Part shown: piece by piece, positions 12,864-62,813 of the stretch | Numbering within the stretch: position 1 is the stretch's first letter | Layout: each line of letters starts with the position of its first letter | Virus record (IMG/VR): IMGVR_UViG_3300017963_000231 | Location: 22,829-86,828 of that record | DNA: 64,000 bases | Source: a virus | Direction: 5' to 3' (one strand) | Program-made: the position numbers and the translations under genes | The notes under the pieces: model-generated | Told to the model about the DNA's origin: nothing | Seen by the model: the letters and a program-made list of their open reading frames with translations, nothing else | Databases searched by the model: none

Positions 12864-14786
12864 ATGGAATCGGCCTTAGCAAAAGTAGCGAAAATCATGG
12901 CAAGGGAATACGGGTTGAATGTCCGGTTCACCGGGTCCGGGGCTTGCGTTAACCTTAAAACCAAGGAGATGCAACTTCCGGCCCTGGATGATCCGGTCAT
13001 TTTTGAGACCATTTCCGGGTATTTGGACCATGAGGTTGCTCATGTAAGGTTTACGGATATCGTTCCGTCAATTAAGGATTCTCTGACCATGGATCTTTTC
13101 CGGGTGTTGGAGGATGTGAGGGTTGATCGGGATATGGGCAATCTTTACACCGGCTCCCATAAGAATATCGGGCGGACTCGGAAGGCCGTGTATGAGGCTC
13201 TTTTCACGGAAGCCAATGACCTAAATGAGATGTTCTGGATGGATATTCTGGAAATGACTTCGGGCCGGATGGAGTTCGATGAAATGGGTCCGATGGCTCA
13301 GGAAGCCGTTCTCAAAGCCCTTGATCTTTTCATGGGTCTGGATGAGATAAAGACCACGGCTGATTGTGTAAGCCTTTGCGAGAAGATTGCCAAGCGGTGG
13401 AGGGATACCGATGCCAATCCTACTCCTCAGCCGTCTCCTGGAGGCTCTGAGGAGGAGCAAGAGGGGGATAGTGATGGTTCCTCTGATTCTGGCGGTCAGG
13501 GGGATTCTGAGGGCGACTCAAAGGAAGGATCTAAGGGGGGATCAAAGAAAAAAGGCAAGAAGGGCTCGAAAAAAGAGGGAGAGGAAGATAAGGACGGTGA
13601 GGGCAAGAAAAAAGGCAAGGGAAAAAAGAAGGGCGAGGGCAAGAAAAAAGATAAGAAGGGCGATAAAACGGGAGATGTAGACTCTCCTGATGCGAATAGC
13701 AACAAGCATGCTCCGAAGGATGGAGGAACGGAAGCGGCGGGTATCCGGCGGGAGGATGTGGATATCGCCATTATTCGGGATTACGATAAACTGGATTTGA
13801 TCGATCCTGAAAAAGCGTTGGATCACGGGATCAATAAGATCATAAACGCTCAGGTCAAGAAGTGTGCGAATGATGTTCATATCCCTTTTACCACGGAATA
13901 TGATGTGGTTAAAGACGATTCAAAATCCCGGAACACGATAAAAGAGAAAGCCATAAGGGAGGAAGTTAAAAGTACCGTTGGAGTGTTGATCAGGCGGCTT
14001 CAGATGGTTCTTTTGGCTCGGGATCGGGCAAGGGATCGGTTTGAGCTTGATCGGGGTAGGATCGATTCGAGGAGGCTTCATCAGCTTATCCATAAAACGT
14101 CTAATCGAGTGTTTAAGACTCGGGTAGAGGCCGAAACCGAGAGTACCGCCGTTTATCTCTTAGTTGATTGCTCGGGTTCGATGGGAGGAAAGAAAATTAT
14201 AGCGGCTCAGAAGGCGGCTTGCGCGTTTTCAGCTTGTCTCGATCAGCTTGGGATTGTGCATGAAGTAGGTAGTTTTCAGTGTGTCAAGTCTGAGGAGATA
14301 AGAAATGCGTTCGAACAATACATTGAGGCTAACGGCATGGATTGTTATGATTCTCCGTTTAATAGGTATTATGAAATCCTTTCTCATAGCATTGTAAAGC
14401 GATTTGATCAGCCTTTTGCGCAAGGGGCTTTCGCGAATTTAATGGCGGGGTGTAACAATTGTGACGGTGAATCCGTGAGGGTAGCGGCTCGTCTTTTGGC
14501 TCAGAGGCCGGAAAAACGTAAGATTCTTATGGTGTTTTCGGACGGGATGCCTAGTTGTTATTCGGACCATGATTTGCTCCATAAGGATCTTAAAAAGGCC
14601 GTGAAGGAAATCATGGATGCCGGGATTGAGACTATTGGGGTCGGGATCAGGACCAGTGCTCCAAAGATGTTTTATCCTGATTGGATTCTGATCGATGATA
14701 TAACGACTCTTCCTACGGAAGTGATCAGTCAGCTTGAGAAGTTACTCTTTAATGGGATGATCGGGAAAAAGCGGAGGGTAGCGTGA
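12864..14786 (+). CDS. CobT-like VWA protein with HExxH motif
   Basis: This 640-residue protein has three parts. The N-terminus carries DHEVAH (H56, E57, H60), a zinc-metallopeptidase-type HExxH. A long, Gly/Ser/Lys/Asp-rich low-complexity linker spans about residues 190-280. The C-terminal VWA domain has a complete MIDAS start DCSGS (435-439) and a later DGMP turn. The arrangement resembles cobaltochelatase CobT-like proteins seen in phages, paired with CobS/MoxR ATPases. Real cobalt chelation is doubtful because no CobN or cobalamin genes are present. A MoxR-driven remodelling or proteolytic system is more likely. Confidence 0.85.
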   Translation: MESALAKVAKIMAREYGLNVRFTGSGACVNLKTKEMQLPALDDPVIFETISGYLDHEVAHVRFTDIVPSIKDSLTMDLFRVLEDVRVDRDMGNLYTGSHKNIGRTRKAVYEALFTEANDLNEMFWMDILEMTSGRMEFDEMGPMAQEAVLKALDLFMGLDEIKTTADCVSLCEKIAKRWRDTDANPTPQPSPGGSEEEQEGDSDGSSDSGGQGDSEGDSKEGSKGGSKKKGKKGSKKEGEEDKDGEGKKKGKGKKKGEGKKKDKKGDKTGDVDSPDANSNKHAPKDGGTEAAGIRREDVDIAIIRDYDKLDLIDPEKALDHGINKIINAQVKKCANDVHIPFTTEYDVVKDDSKSRNTIKEKAIREEVKSTVGVLIRRLQMVLLARDRARDRFELDRGRIDSRRLHQLIHKTSNRVFKTRVEAETESTAVYLLVDCSGSMGGKKIIAAQKAACAFSACLDQLGIVHEVGSFQCVKSEEIRNAFEQYIEANGMDCYDSPFNRYYEILSHSIVKRFDQPFAQGAFANLMAGCNNCDGESVRVAARLLAQRPEKRKILMVFSDGMPSCYSDHDLLHKDLKKAVKEIMDAGIETIGVGIRTSAPKMFYPDWILIDDITTLPTEVISQLEKLLFNGMIGKKRRVA

Positions 14787-44455: not shown

Positions 44456-44527
44456 CTCACGACCACCTTAATTATTGAGCCTTGGCTTGAGGGATTGAGC
44501 ACATTGGCGATAAGTGAGGACAGATGA

Positions 44528-45343: not shown

Positions 45344-45353
45344 GACAAGCGAT

Positions 45354-45574: not shown

Positions 45575-48500
45575 ATGGCATTCGGCGGCGGTGGAATGGC
45601 TGGATCGGTCGGTCTTGGGTTTGTGATGAGCCTGAAAGACAATGTGACCGGCCCGGCTATGAAAATCCACAAGTCAGTTCTTGCGCTTCAAACGGGTCTA
45701 TCGAGACTGTCCATGGGGTTCGGCCTTCTCGGAGGTGCGATGGCCGGGATGGGCGGTGGAATTGCAATGGGGTTAGCCGGAGGTGTCAAAGCGGCTACGC
45801 GATTTGAAGGGACATTGAAAACTATCCAAGGAATCACGGGGGCGGCATTTGACGATAAGCAATTGGATGCTTTAGGGAGTAGGATTGACCAGATTACATC
45901 TACTCTTCCGATGTCCTCTCAGCAAATGGCAGACGCGATGCAACAAGCCGCTCAACAAGGTCTTGTGTTTGGTAAGACCGGAGAAGAGGCGGCAAAGACT
46001 CTTGAGAGGATCGGTTTTGAGGCCGCTCAGTTATCGGCTATTACGGGAGATATGACGGCGGCAGAAGCTCTTGGCGGAATGGGTGCGACTCTCAAGCAGT
46101 TCAATTTGGATATCTCGGAAAATGCCGGGGCCTTGTCGGATTCGATGGTCATGGTGCGAAATTCAACTAGGGCCACCGTTCCCTGGCTCATGGAAGTCAA
46201 TTCACGGGCGGCGGGTACTGCCAAGACGTTTGGATTGACGGCGGCTGAATTCCAAGGAGTTTCCGGTGTGGTTGCGGACGTTGTGAAGCAACCGCAAGGT
46301 GCCGCGTCCGGTTTGACTATGATTTTCAACTCGATACTCAAGAAATCGGGGAAATTCGCCAAGCTGATGGGGATGGATGTCAAGAGTTTCCAGGCCGCGA
46401 TGATGGAGGAAGGTGGTCCATCGGCAATGTTCCAGGGCATTGTAGGACAACTCAGTAAACTGGATAAATTCCAAAAGGCGGCGATATTTAAGGAACTCGG
46501 GATTGGCGGTCGATTCGCGACTCGGGTAATGAACTCTCTTATCGCGGCGAATGATAAGATGATTGACGGGCAAACTAACCTATCGCTCGTTATTGGTCAG
46601 GCGAATGCGGCATGGTTGGCCGGGATGAGGCGGGGAAATAATCCCAATGCGTTTTATGAGAGGATGAGCAAAACTGCGGGGGCTCTTTTTGCGACTTTCC
46701 AAGGTAACATCGAGAACATCAAAAAGCAGTTGGGAAAAGAACTACTTGTGGCAGTGAAGCCTCTACTGAATGCTTTGATTGGGATTCAGACGGCATTTCT
46801 CGCGATTGAACCCGCTCAGAAGAGGCTTCTTGTGGTTATACTCGGGATTGTCTCTGCGATTCTGACTCTTTCCGGGATGTTGACATTGGTAATTGCGGGA
46901 TTCATGATGTTTGGGACGGTGCTTATTCCGGCGCTTCTTGTGGCGATTCCATTGGTTTTGGGAGTTGCGGCGGCAATCGGAGCAGTAGTCGGAGCACTGT
47001 ACGTGTTCAAAGGTGAAGGGAAATCGGCATTTCAGTTCCTCGGAGATGGTTTCAATTCTTTGATGCTCGGGGCATCTGATTTTATTGGCGGTTTCATTAA
47101 TGCGTGGCGTGGAATGGGAAAGGCTTTTATGGGTCCATGGAAAGAGGCCGGGAGTGCGATATCGAGTGTGATCAATGAGCTTCTTTATACGTTGGGCATT
47201 ACTGGAGAATGGGGTGATACTCTTAAAGACCTTGGGACTATTCTCGGTATAAAAGTAGGGAATGCCATAAAAAGGATAGGGCAAAAATTCAATAAATTTG
47301 TTCAAAAATGGTATCCCTTTATGACGGGATTTGTGTCGAGGATGGAGAAAGCCCGGAAGCCGATTAAGGCTATTGGGATGGCGCTTTTTGATATTTTTGA
47401 GGCTATCGGAAGTCTTGGAAAGCGTGTCCTCGAATTCTTTGGTCTTTGGTCTGATGATGGGCAAGATGCAATGGGTGACATTGCGGGAGGTATTGCCAAA
47501 GGCGAAGCGGCGGCAGATAGGTTCGTTGCTTCTTTGGAGAAGATTGCCGGACGGCTTGAAAAAATAGATGAAAAAATAGATGCAATTGATGTTGAAGGAG
47601 TTTTTAAGGGTGCCGAAGAGGGATTTAAGAAAGGCATTGAACCGTTACGGAAGTTATCCGTCGGGCTTGAAGGGGTGTTCTCTAGTTTGAGTAGGTCGAT
47701 TCAGAGAATCGGGACTCTTTTGGATACGGATATAGGTAAAGGCGTTACGGTAATGGATGGCTTAAACGCCGTGACTTTTGCATTGAATGTGCAATTCGGA
47801 TTGATGGCTCTTGCTTTGAATCAGGTCGCTTTAGCGATTGAGTTGATCGTTATCCATTTGACTTCTATGGGTCAGATTGTGAAAGGAGCGGCTCAATTAT
47901 GGTGGGCGGTTTTTGGTACTGCTTTACCCGCATCCCTACATATTCTGGCTTTAACGGTAAAGCAGATATTTAACAATATTTTAGGGACAGTGGGATCTAT
48001 TTTGCAGGAAGTTGGCGGATTAATTAATAAATTTACGAGTGACCATCCGAAGTTGGCTAAGATGCTTGGGGTTGATCCAAGTGTGGGACAAGGACTTGTT
48101 CTTTGGGGAGAAAGTCTACAAGAAGGTGCAATGGATACGGAGGGGACGGAAAAGAAAATTGCCGCGCTTAAGAAGGAAATCACAGGGGCTTTCGATCCGG
48201 CGATAGAGAGTTTCAAGGAAGCCGGGAAATCCCATCAGTACATGGGGGATGCGTTTAACGATTGGTCTAAGAGAACGGCAGATATTTTGGGGATGAAAGA
48301 ACATAAACCACCTATGGATAAGGTGCCAGGACGGGGAGAATTATTTGGTCCTCCGGCCCCTGCTCCGATGGTGGAGCCTCCTGGATTTGCTAATCTTATG
48401 GATTTCTACAAAGATGCGATGGCCCCGCCAGGGCAAGTTTCCGGTGGGATAAGTGCTGATATGTCGGGAGAGGCGTTGAAATCAGCAATCGCGGCAGTGA

Positions 48501-49493: not shown

Positions 49494-50294
49494 ATGGCTT
49501 TATTTCGTGAGCAAGTAGATGATACGGGTGAAAATCCAGAAATGGAAAATTTCAATGCTCTTGGAACGCCGGATGAGGAGTTTACGGTGATTAAGGACGT
49601 GAACTCTCCGATCTGCTTCCTGGACTTGAAATTGGACGGTGAGTGGGTTCCGATGGAAGAAATCGGGATTCGGAGACTCGTGACTGAAGTGGAGATAAAT
49701 GATTGTACTGACTGCAAAAAGAAAGAAGGACAGTTGAATTTTTATGATCCGGACGGGAGTTTGATTGAATCAGAACTTCTTTCTGAGGGCCTTGAACTTC
49801 GGATAGGGATGGGCTTTCTTGGGGATGTCAGGAACTTCGGATCATGGGTTGTCAATGAGGTAAATCCGATTATTGGTCCGACTGACTTTCGGCTTGAAAT
49901 GAAATTGCAGTGCCTTTCGTGTTTTATGGATCGGACGGCTGATCTTGCTCGGTATGAAAATATCACGGCGGGGGAGATTGCCAAGCTAGTTGCGGCTAAA
50001 TATGGTTTGGAACCGAGTGTGGCCGATCCAGGAGATGTCATTCCGGAGTTTTCTCAGGCGTATGAATCGGATTGGTCAGTAATGGATAAGCTGGCTCAGT
50101 CTTATGGGTATCATTGGTATGTAGAGGATGATCAGTTGATTTTTCGTCCTCCAGAATCGAAAACTGCAAATTTTGAACTCAACTTCTGGCCCAAGCCAGT
50201 AGAGGGGCAAAATCCGCGCTCGTTCCGTTTTGGGAATCTGGCTTCGGCCCGGTATTCCTGCAAAAAGGATTCTGAGTGCGGGAAATCCTCTTGA
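49494..50294 (+). CDS. Baseplate hub protein (gpD/gp27-like), N-terminal part
   Basis: The 266-residue product ends at TGA 50292-50294, but the same reading frame remains open after this codon to 50870, where the expected second half of a gpD-like hub is found. The first half shows VTEVEINDCTDCKKKEGQLNFYD, GDVRNFGSWVVNEVNP, ITAGEIAKLVAAKYGL and DWSVMDKLAQSYGYHWYVEDDQLIF, all typical of gpD-like late control proteins. A CKKDSECGKSS stretch precedes the TGA. A hairpin (50309-50322) lies downstream of it. Readthrough, selenocysteine, or a nonsense mutation would explain the split. Confidence 0.85.
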   Translation: MALFREQVDDTGENPEMENFNALGTPDEEFTVIKDVNSPICFLDLKLDGEWVPMEEIGIRRLVTEVEINDCTDCKKKEGQLNFYDPDGSLIESELLSEGLELRIGMGFLGDVRNFGSWVVNEVNPIIGPTDFRLEMKLQCLSCFMDRTADLARYENITAGEIAKLVAAKYGLEPSVADPGDVIPEFSQAYESDWSVMDKLAQSYGYHWYVEDDQLIFRPPESKTANFELNFWPKPVEGQNPRSFRFGNLASARYSCKKDSECGKSS

Positions 50295-50322
50295 AATCAG
50301 AAGTGTGACTCCCAGGTGGGAG
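50292..50322 (+). promoter_or_regulatory. In-frame TGA followed by hairpin (possible recoding site)
   Basis: The TGA at 50292-50294 is followed 14 nt later by CTCCC (50309-50313), loop AGGT and GGGAG (50318-50322). The first loop G lies 21 nt after the TGA. That distance and a loop guanine at the start agree with the loose consensus for bacterial SECIS elements, but the stem is only 5 bp and no SelA/SelB/tRNA-Sec gene is in the window. Confidence 0.3.
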
Positions 50323-50870
50323 CAAGAATTTTCGCAAAAAGCGATGTGTTGAATGACCCGTTTGTCCGGGCTCAGTATGAGTATTTTTCGGAGAACGGTC
50401 AGGATCCTCTCGGATTAGAGGAGTTCTATGGGTATGTGAATCGGGAGACCGGGGAGAATGTGCCTTTTTCTTACTACATGAACTCCATCGATCTTTCGGC
50501 AGGAGGGGCGGCGATATTCTCTACCCGTCTTACTAGTTCCGAACGGCAGTGTAAAGATGGGTGTGGGATTGACGGTGAGTGTTCTTATGGCATTACTCAT
50601 CTTCAGGCCGGGTTGATGATTCCCGTTCTTGGGATTGGGACCAAATATTCTGGTCTTTACGAGCTTTCCAAAGTGCGTCATCGATATGATAGCAATGGAT
50701 ACCATACGTCGTTCGAGGGTAAATGTATAACGCGGGCCAGGGGTAAAGCGGAGTGTGATCCATGTGATCCATGTTGTGGCCCAAGCTACTCGAATAACAC
50801 GCGGTCACAACGGACAGGCCAAAAGTGGAGGACTTCTAAGTTGAGTGTGGATCAGGAGGTCGATGGATGA
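50316..50870 (+). CDS. Baseplate hub protein, C-terminal part
   Basis: This 184-residue piece has the gpD-like end GLYELSKVRHRYDSNGYHTSF (minus a few residues) near the middle of its second half and an unusual cysteine block (RQCKDGCGIDGEC; CDPCDPCCG). A GTG at 50316 is the first possible start, but no ribosome binding site precedes it, so it is more likely the rest of the upstream hub protein after a read-through TGA. The sum, about 459 residues, matches a full gpD-like hub plus inserts. Confidence 0.75.
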   Translation: MGARIFAKSDVLNDPFVRAQYEYFSENGQDPLGLEEFYGYVNRETGENVPFSYYMNSIDLSAGGAAIFSTRLTSSERQCKDGCGIDGECSYGITHLQAGLMIPVLGIGTKYSGLYELSKVRHRYDSNGYHTSFEGKCITRARGKAECDPCDPCCGPSYSNNTRSQRTGQKWRTSKLSVDQEVDG

Positions 50871-52045
50871 GAATTTATACTGGAGAGAAGGTCAGATACG
50901 TAGGAAAGTATCGAGGCTTTGTTACAAATATCGAGGATCCAGATCAGCAATTCAGGATTAAGGCTATTGTTCCGCAAGTGTTGGGAGAGGTAGAATGTAA
51001 TTGGGCATTGCCGATGCTCCCCGGAGGGCAGAATGATCCAAAGTTACCTGAATTAGATGAGATGGTCTGGATCGAATTCGAGGATGGAGACCCGAATTTC
51101 CCGACGTGGCGAGGGGGGTTTCCGAGTACGGCTCAAGGAGAGAAACCCGTGCCGAGTGAGGCAAGGGGCGAAGATGGGGATACGGTTCTTCCGCCGAGAG
51201 GAACATCTACCAGAACGCTCGCAGATGGAACGGAGCTTGCGGAACCGGCAGTAGCCTATGCAGGGGCCTATGGTGTTGAATCTCGCAAGACTCGGGGCGG
51301 TCAAAGGATCGAGATTGATCCAACTCCGGATGCTCGTAGAATGGCCGTCATGAACGAAGGCAACAACTTTTCGATGGAGTGTAATGAGCAGGGGTGTTAC
51401 CGGCAGAGGGTAAGCCGGTGTGATACGGTGTGTTCCGGGAGTAACTGCCAGACTAATTGTGGATCGTGCCGGTGTGTGAATTGTGGCCCATGTTACACGG
51501 AAAGCCGGAAAGACTGCAATACCGTTTGTAAGGGCAAATCGGGGTTTACCTATAATGGCGATGTTCGAGTGGTGCTTGGAGGAGGGGAAAACCAAGTAAT
51601 CTGTAACGGAGTTTTGGAGATCACCGGATCAGGGCAGTTGAAGCTATCTCTCGGGAGTGCCGTAGGCCAAGCCGTGGCCGGGAATCTTCAGCACGGGGTT
51701 ATGGGAGCCCAAGAGAATGTCATTCTGGAGAACAAGCAGGAAGTTATCGGGAACGCTTCGGCTCGGGCAATCGGGAAATCCGTAGATGTTTTGACCGGTA
51801 AGTATCAGATGAAAGCCTCAACCAATGAAATGAACATGGATGGACTTGCGGTGAGGTTGGGGGATGAGCTTTTGGCTCTAAGTCCATTGCTCAAAGGAAC
51901 GGAAGTCTTGACTCTTTTGAATGCTTTTATTCAGTGGGCAATGACTCATACCCATCCATCTGATGGGGCTCCGGCTACTCCTCCTTGGACGGGAGGACTT
52001 TTAACGCCGGGAGTGCATACATCAAATAAGGTGTTTACGGAATGA
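50867..52045 (+). CDS. Baseplate spike protein (gpV/VgrG-like OB) with 12-cysteine block
   Basis: The 392-residue protein begins with an OB-fold as in gpV/gp5 (YRGFVTNIEDPDQQFRIKAIVPQVLG; VWIEFEDGDPNFPTW). Residues 172-221 contain 12 cysteines (172, 177, 185, 189, 194, 198, 201, 203, 206, 209, 217, 221), which is far from usual for spike proteins. A beta-helix-like segment (NVILENKQEVIGNASARAIG) and HTHPSDG (metal-binding-like) follow near the end. It punctures the outer membrane. ATGA overlaps on both sides. Confidence 0.85.
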   Translation: MRIYTGEKVRYVGKYRGFVTNIEDPDQQFRIKAIVPQVLGEVECNWALPMLPGGQNDPKLPELDEMVWIEFEDGDPNFPTWRGGFPSTAQGEKPVPSEARGEDGDTVLPPRGTSTRTLADGTELAEPAVAYAGAYGVESRKTRGGQRIEIDPTPDARRMAVMNEGNNFSMECNEQGCYRQRVSRCDTVCSGSNCQTNCGSCRCVNCGPCYTESRKDCNTVCKGKSGFTYNGDVRVVLGGGENQVICNGVLEITGSGQLKLSLGSAVGQAVAGNLQHGVMGAQENVILENKQEVIGNASARAIGKSVDVLTGKYQMKASTNEMNMDGLAVRLGDELLALSPLLKGTEVLTLLNAFIQWAMTHTHPSDGAPATPPWTGGLLTPGVHTSNKVFTE

Positions 52046-61922: not shown

Positions 61923-62813
61923 ATGGATTACTTGATTATTGGCGGGGTATCAATAGGGGTTGTAGTAATTCTCTCAGCTATCGGGGCTTTTATCGTAGCC
62001 AAGGGGAATCCTGGCGTGGCGTTTAAGGTTTGGTTTACATGGGTAAAGAAGTATGGACAGTACGGTCTTATCTTGGCGGCTGGGATATTTGCTGGGTTGA
62101 TATCCGTAGCCTCGAAAAAAGAGATCGATGAGCAAGTGGAAGCTCGTGCTGGGGTAAATGTGAAAGCCGACTCTATCAAAGGTCAAATTGTGGAGGCCAA
62201 TGCGACGGCAAAAGCTGAAATCGCAGTAGCCAAAGCCAAGGATGAAAACAAGAAAAAGGAACTCGAAGAGATTAAAAAGATCGAGGATCCGATGGAACGG
62301 CGGAAACGTCTTACGGAAATGCTTATTCTGGCTCTTGTGGTGGGCATTTTCGTGGGTTGCGCGGCAAAGCAAGCTCAGGAGTACATATCCGCTATCCCCA
62401 AGCCTCTGGACGTATCTGAGTACGTTTCGGCGGCTGAAAAAGCCCCTGAGTTCTTTATTCCGGTGGAAGGGGGGTGTACCTTTGAGAAGCTACCTCTTCC
62501 GGCAGGGCTTTTGACTACGGAAATCGGGCAGAAGATCCAAATTTCAGGGGGTATCTTGATATCAGACTGCAAAGCCGAGCAACTGATTCTTTACCGCCAA
62601 GCGGCTGAGAAGTTTTATGTTGAACGGAATAATGTGGCTCTTGTCTATCAATCCCTGGATCAAGGATGCCGGAATATCGAAACGCTTTATCAGGAACAGT
62701 TGGAAATGGAGACCAATCCCGATTTATGGGAAAGTATCGATTTTGAGGCGGGGTTTGCGGCGGGGGCCGCTACTTGTATTGGGATTACTTACGCGGTGAA
62801 CGACGGGGAGTAA
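61923..62813 (+). CDS. Spanin-like protein with internal lipobox
   Basis: The 296-residue protein has two TM segments (4-25, 45-62), a Lys/Glu/Ala coiled coil (about 65-120), then a second signal-like stretch MERRKRLTEMLILALVVGIF with lipobox VGCA (C146). The rest is periplasm-like with further cysteines. An in-frame ATG at 62292 with GAGG at the right distance could make the second half separately as an outer-membrane lipoprotein. The combination is as expected for inner- and outer-membrane spanin parts in one gene. ATG 61923 follows GAGGAGGG; the longer frame from 61866 would lack a site. Confidence 0.7.
   Translation: MDYLIIGGVSIGVVVILSAIGAFIVAKGNPGVAFKVWFTWVKKYGQYGLILAAGIFAGLISVASKKEIDEQVEARAGVNVKADSIKGQIVEANATAKAEIAVAKAKDENKKKELEEIKKIEDPMERRKRLTEMLILALVVGIFVGCAAKQAQEYISAIPKPLDVSEYVSAAEKAPEFFIPVEGGCTFEKLPLPAGLLTTEIGQKIQISGGILISDCKAEQLILYRQAAEKFYVERNNVALVYQSLDQGCRNIETLYQEQLEMETNPDLWESIDFEAGFAAGAATCIGITYAVNDGE

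What the first reader, a model, noticed from the sequence alone, without database searches (positions are those of the whole stretch)
49494..50870. Baseplate hub gene interrupted by an in-frame TGA, with a downstream hairpin at SECIS-like distance
The gpD-like hub is split by a single TGA at 50292; the frame stays open before and after, and the two parts carry the N- and C-terminal hub motifs. No ribosome binding site precedes the first possible restart (GTG 50316). The TGA lies in a cysteine-rich stretch (C at -5 and +4 codons), so a Cys or Trp codon could be the ancestral one. The hairpin 50309-50322 with AGGT loop has its guanine 21 nt after the TGA. Readthrough, selenocysteine insertion and simple mutation all need consideration.
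Basis: partly seen in the sequence, partly recalled or inferred. Interest (0 to 1): 0.75.

Follow-up and report, generated by a model that had tools for sequence, protein, structure and literature searches.

The report
Phage hub gene with lineage-specific stop
A tail-baseplate gene of an uncultured virus carries one genuine in-frame stop codon in a floppy, unconserved loop; relatives have none, and the hairpin that suggested selenocysteine is of a kind found after about a third of this virus's codons, so it is most likely an ordinary, possibly leaky, stop.

Summary
In detail: one continuous frame (49494-50870) encodes a gp27/gp44/VgrG-type baseplate hub, broken by a single TGA at 50292-50294, with a 5-bp hairpin 19 nt downstream. 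It is not a one-off sequencing error: a second IMG/VR contig of the same virus, differing at 11 sites in 18.9 kb, has the same TGA. The selenocysteine reading is not supported. Eight distinct relatives have an uninterrupted hub and none has Cys or Trp at the aligned position (Ser in the closest). The flanking cysteines are not shared, and the position lies in a variable loop predicted to be disordered. The published four-point bacterial SECIS model is met after 31% of sampled codons of this virus's own genes and by several of its ordinary TGA terminators. TGA is a normal stop here (17 of 52 genes), and the 86.8-kb record has no suppressor or Sec tRNA. The part after the TGA is as conserved as the part before it, and no other tail gene with a homologue is broken. 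Most likely this is a recent, lineage-specific stop in a tolerant loop, with enough full-length hub (about three copies per virion) made by low-level UGA readthrough. A two-chain hub by re-initiation and a defective lineage remain open.

The parts
49494..50870 (+). Baseplate hub frame (gp27/gp44/VgrG type), 458 codons around one internal TGA
49494..50294 (+). First part, 266 residues, ending at the TGA; ribosome binding site AGGAGGT upstream
   Evidence: Phage_GPD below the Pfam cut-off, PHROG_52 E 2e-14
50292..50294 (+). In-frame TGA followed by A (TGAA); codon 267, in a loop predicted to be disordered (258-287)
   Evidence: shared by a second contig of the same virus
50295..50870 (+). Second part, 191 codons, as conserved as the first; in-frame GTG 50316, GTG 50346 and TTG 50349 have no ribosome binding site
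50309..50322 (+). Hairpin CTCCC-AGGT-GGGAG; fits the bacterial SECIS consensus formally, at a rate expected by chance in this genome
50867..52045 (+). Next gene, spike-like, with its own AGGAGGT site; start overlaps the hub's final stop
   Evidence: weak PHROG matches to hub/lysozyme families

Best explanation
A real, lineage-specific substitution has put a TGA in the middle of an otherwise intact baseplate hub gene, in a flexible loop whose sequence is not conserved. TGA is a normal stop for this virus, so most ribosomes should end there and give a 266-residue fragment. Enough full-length hub is most likely made by low-level, unprogrammed misreading of UGA by near-cognate Trp or Cys tRNAs, helped by the UGAA context and a strong ribosome binding site, and sufficient because a virion needs only about three hub chains. 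Shown: the TGA, its presence in two strains, its absence in relatives, the loop position, the conserved downstream part, the lack of a restart signal. Inferred: that the virus is viable and that readthrough is the route.
For: Same TGA in two contigs that differ at 11 sites in 18.9 kb. Uninterrupted hubs in eight distinct relatives, gap-free alignment to the closest across the codon. The loop 258-287 has pLDDT under 50. No ribosome binding site at any restart candidate. C part as conserved as N part with no excess of window-only changes. No other tail gene with a homologue is broken. Readthrough of UGA, including at a UGAA site, without a SECIS is documented in E. coli K-12 and attributed to near-cognate Cys and Trp tRNAs (PMC5373646). 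The copy number of about three is general knowledge of gp27-type hubs.
Against: No direct evidence of any read-through product. Bacterial readthrough is usually low, and UGAA ends translation quickly with the more active RF2 variant. The host and its release factors are unknown. No dedicated stimulator was identified. A very recent harmful mutation would look the same.
Confidence: 0.45

Rival explanations
1. Two-chain hub. Translation stops at the TGA and re-initiates on the same message at GTG 50316, GTG 50346 or TTG 50349; the two chains fold together because the break is in a disordered loop.
For: The break is in a loop predicted to be disordered, so little of the fold would be lost. GTG 50316 lies 22 nt after the TGA, near enough for coupled re-initiation. 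The C part is conserved.
Against: No ribosome binding site at any candidate, although this virus uses strong ones. GTG 50316 is inside the hairpin. No homologue is split.
Confidence: 0.2
2. Plain loss of function. The hub is broken and these copies are defective, complemented, or a minor form of the population.
For: A lone stop in an unconserved position with no recoding signal above background is what a recent nonsense mutation looks like.
Against: Two strains share it, all other tail genes with homologues are intact, and the downstream part shows no decay. A hub is expected to be essential.
Confidence: 0.27
3. Selenocysteine insertion directed by the hairpin as a bacterial SECIS element.
For: The hairpin meets the formal SECIS model. 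Cysteines lie nearby, and the hub and spike of this lineage have gained many cysteines.
Against: No Cys at the position in eight distinct relatives. The same test is passed after 31% of sampled codons and by ordinary TGA terminators. A structural hub has no known redox role. No Sec tRNA on the record; the host is unknown.
Confidence: 0.03
4. Genetic-code reassignment or a suppressor host that reads TGA as an amino acid.
For: One in-frame TGA in a conserved gene.
Against: TGA ends 17 of 52 genes. The strains exchange TAA and TGA at the tail-tube stop. No suppressor tRNA on the record.
Confidence: 0.02
5. Sequencing or assembly error.
For: Both copies are metagenome assemblies and might share reads; this could not be checked.
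Against: Two contigs that differ at 11 sites elsewhere share the codon. It is a substitution, not an indel, and not in a homopolymer.
Confidence: 0.03

Closest known systems
Mu gp44 / T4 gp27 / P2 gpD / VgrG baseplate hub proteins
   Same: Fold over residues 34-414 and gene order in the tail module
   Different: The frame is interrupted by a TGA; sequence identity to solved hubs is only about 10-17%
Leaky UGA of the phage Q-beta coat gene
   Same: An in-frame UGA in a phage structural gene, with a continuous frame behind it (Q-beta readthrough cited in PMC8310308)
   Different: There the longer protein is an established product; here no product is shown and no relative has the stop
UGA readthrough at pheL and nudL in E. 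coli K-12 (PMC5373646)
   Same: UGA read by near-cognate tRNAs without a SECIS; pheL has the same UGAA context
   Different: Those are host genes with short extensions and measured products
Bacterial selenoproteins with a SECIS downstream of UGA
   Same: A UGA with a hairpin in the allowed distance range
   Different: No Cys homologues, no redox enzyme, hairpin not above background

Membership tests
gp27/gp44/VgrG-type baseplate hub | Hub fold across both halves | tested here: met
   Z 17-23 to many hubs over residues 34-414; model mean pLDDT 65, so loops are uncertain
gp27/gp44/VgrG-type baseplate hub | Position between tape measure and spike/baseplate J genes | tested here: met
Bacterial selenoprotein | Sec position aligned with Cys in homologues (at least two Cys homologues and over half TGA/Cys pairs in PMC1088965) | tested here: not met
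   None of eight distinct relatives has Cys there
Bacterial selenoprotein | SECIS hairpin: loop 3-9 nt, stem 4-16 bp, G in the first two loop positions, 16-37 nt from UGA, energy at most -7.5 kcal/mol | tested here: met
   Met formally, but also after 31% of sampled codons, so not diagnostic
Bacterial selenoprotein | Host with selA, selB, selC, selD | not testable with these tools
   Host unknown; no relative found in bacterial genomes
TGA-recoded virus | TGA rare as a stop and frequent inside genes | tested here: not met
   TGA ends 17 of 52 genes; one internal case only
Programmed stop-codon readthrough | Stop conserved among relatives | tested here: not met
   Only in two near-identical strains; absent from eight relatives
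Programmed stop-codon readthrough | Full-length product made | not testable with these tools
   Needs proteomics or a reporter

The most novel reading that the evidence does not exclude
The hub of this virus contains selenocysteine within a Cys-rich loop that only this lineage has, which would make it a selenoprotein in a phage virion.
Probability: 0.03. Interest if true: 0.85.

Novelty: new member of a known kind. Interest (0 to 1): 0.2.

Why it matters
If readthrough is confirmed, it shows that a low-copy, probably essential virion protein tolerates a leaky stop, which gene callers would report as two truncated genes. It also shows how weak a TGA plus a hairpin is as evidence for selenocysteine: in this genome about one codon in three passes the structural test.

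Tried and rejected
Genetic-code reassignment: rejected, because TGA ends 17 of 52 genes and the two strains exchange TAA and TGA at the tail-tube stop.

Frameshift or indel: rejected, because the alignment to L005 has no gap across the codon and the frame is the same before and after.

A second readthrough gene at TGA 1905: rejected, because a distinct HTH gene follows, with relatives that are separate genes in most phage records.

Rfam near the TGA: only a chance lncRNA match far below its threshold.

Suppressor or Sec tRNA: none, only a tRNA-Gln on the record.

More copies of the hub: no match in phage DNA records, only weak partial protein matches, none in two bacterial genome scans, and a DNA pattern with the codon left open found only the second contig.

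dN/dS between window and L005 was not usable because synonymous sites are saturated.

Literature: no phage selenoprotein or tail-gene stop readthrough was found in the papers listed.

Full report
What is there. The window is bases 22829-86828 of an 86,828-base virus record. Its tail module runs sheath (41933), tube (43911), tape measure (45575), small proteins (48667, 49178), hub (49494), spike-like gene (50867) and baseplate J (53883). The hub frame 49494-50870 is open apart from TGA at 50292-50294. PHROG_52 matches both pieces in order, the second only weakly. A model of the read-through protein, built with eight relatives (mean pLDDT 65), matches Mu gp44, the MuSo2 43-kDa protein, T4 gp27 and VgrG/eCIS hubs over residues 34-414. 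The two pieces are therefore halves of one ordinary hub.

Is the TGA real? Contig IMGVR_UViG_3300017971_000447 is the same virus. Over 18.9 kb it differs at 11 sites, and its hub gene is identical, TGA included. A search with the codon left open found no other copy. One of the 11 differences swaps the stop of the tail-tube gene between TAA and TGA; readthrough there would add 15 codons. Whether the two assemblies come from independent reads could not be checked.

Relatives. Diverged relatives were found mainly through the baseplate J gene. Their hubs are L005 (52% identical), L010, L012, L013 and L015 (18-28%), and L014, L016 and L018 (17-19%); L011 and L017 duplicate L012 and L016. All are uninterrupted. 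Against L005 the alignment around the TGA has no gaps, and the aligned codon is TCC, Ser. In the others the position falls in a variable, mostly charged stretch, and none has Cys or Trp there. In L005 the cysteine at -5 aligns with Ser and the one at +4 with Ile. The model gives the loop 258-287 a pLDDT under 50.

The hairpin. CTCCC-AGGT-GGGAG fits the bacterial SECIS model given in PMC13188914: loop of 4 nt, G second, 19 nt from the UGA. As a control the four-point test was applied to 1,919 sampled codons of this virus's genes: 31% pass and 15% have a hairpin at least as stable. A cruder count by G-C pairs gave 6.6%, and the 54-nt folding energy is matched at 26% of positions. Ordinary TGA terminators pass too, for example those ending at 14786, 16697 and 50870. 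The hairpin therefore carries almost no information. The Sargasso Sea selenoproteome study required at least two Cys homologues and more than half TGA/Cys pairs (PMC1088965); here there are none.

Genetic code and tRNAs. TGA ends 17 of the 52 genes counted. In the list of in-frame stops with long open stretches on both sides, the other + strand cases are boundaries between genes with their own start codons; 1905, the only other TGA, was checked and separates a helicase gene from a distinct HTH gene. Comparison with proteins of nine relative loci shows no other + strand tail gene with an internal stop; the stops seen in matches starting at 44504 and ending at 45352 lie outside the gene. No suppressor or Sec tRNA is on the record.

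Restart or readthrough. The hub and the next gene have AGGAGGT ribosome binding sites; GTG 50316, GTG 50346 and TTG 50349 have none, and GTG 50316 is inside the hairpin. The C part is as conserved as the N part (55% identity for residues 268-411, 53% for 40-255), and the relative-rate count for 268-411 is even, 12 window-only and 12 L005-only changes. Full-length use, or a very recent stop, predicts this. Readthrough at UGA without a SECIS is documented in E. coli K-12, including at UGAA, and attributed to near-cognate Cys and Trp tRNAs (PMC5373646). From general knowledge of gp27-type hubs a virion needs one trimer, so a small readthrough fraction could suffice; that step is inference.

Verdict. 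The feature is real and of an ordinary kind. Selenocysteine and code reassignment are not supported. Most likely it is a recent stop codon in a tolerant loop, bypassed by leaky reading. Re-initiation and a defective lineage remain possible, and sequence alone cannot decide between them.

Noticed in passing
window 49494-50870 and 50867-52045: Hub and following spike-like protein are far richer in cysteine (16 and 14) than those of relatives (0-5 and 0-3), with 12 of the spike's cysteines packed between residues 172 and 221; metal binding or disulfides in this lineage's hub-spike complex are possible.
   Followed up: partly
window 44422: The two strains differ in the stop codon of the tail-tube gene, TAA in the window and TGA in the other contig.
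   Followed up: yes
L019:9372-9445 (virus record, left of the window): The only tRNA found on the record is a tRNA-Gln with anticodon TTG.
   Followed up: no
window 47165-47249 and 62387-62400: Seven of the 11 strain differences sit in two tight clusters, one in the tape measure gene, one near the end of the second contig; recombination or assembly-edge effects.
   Followed up: no
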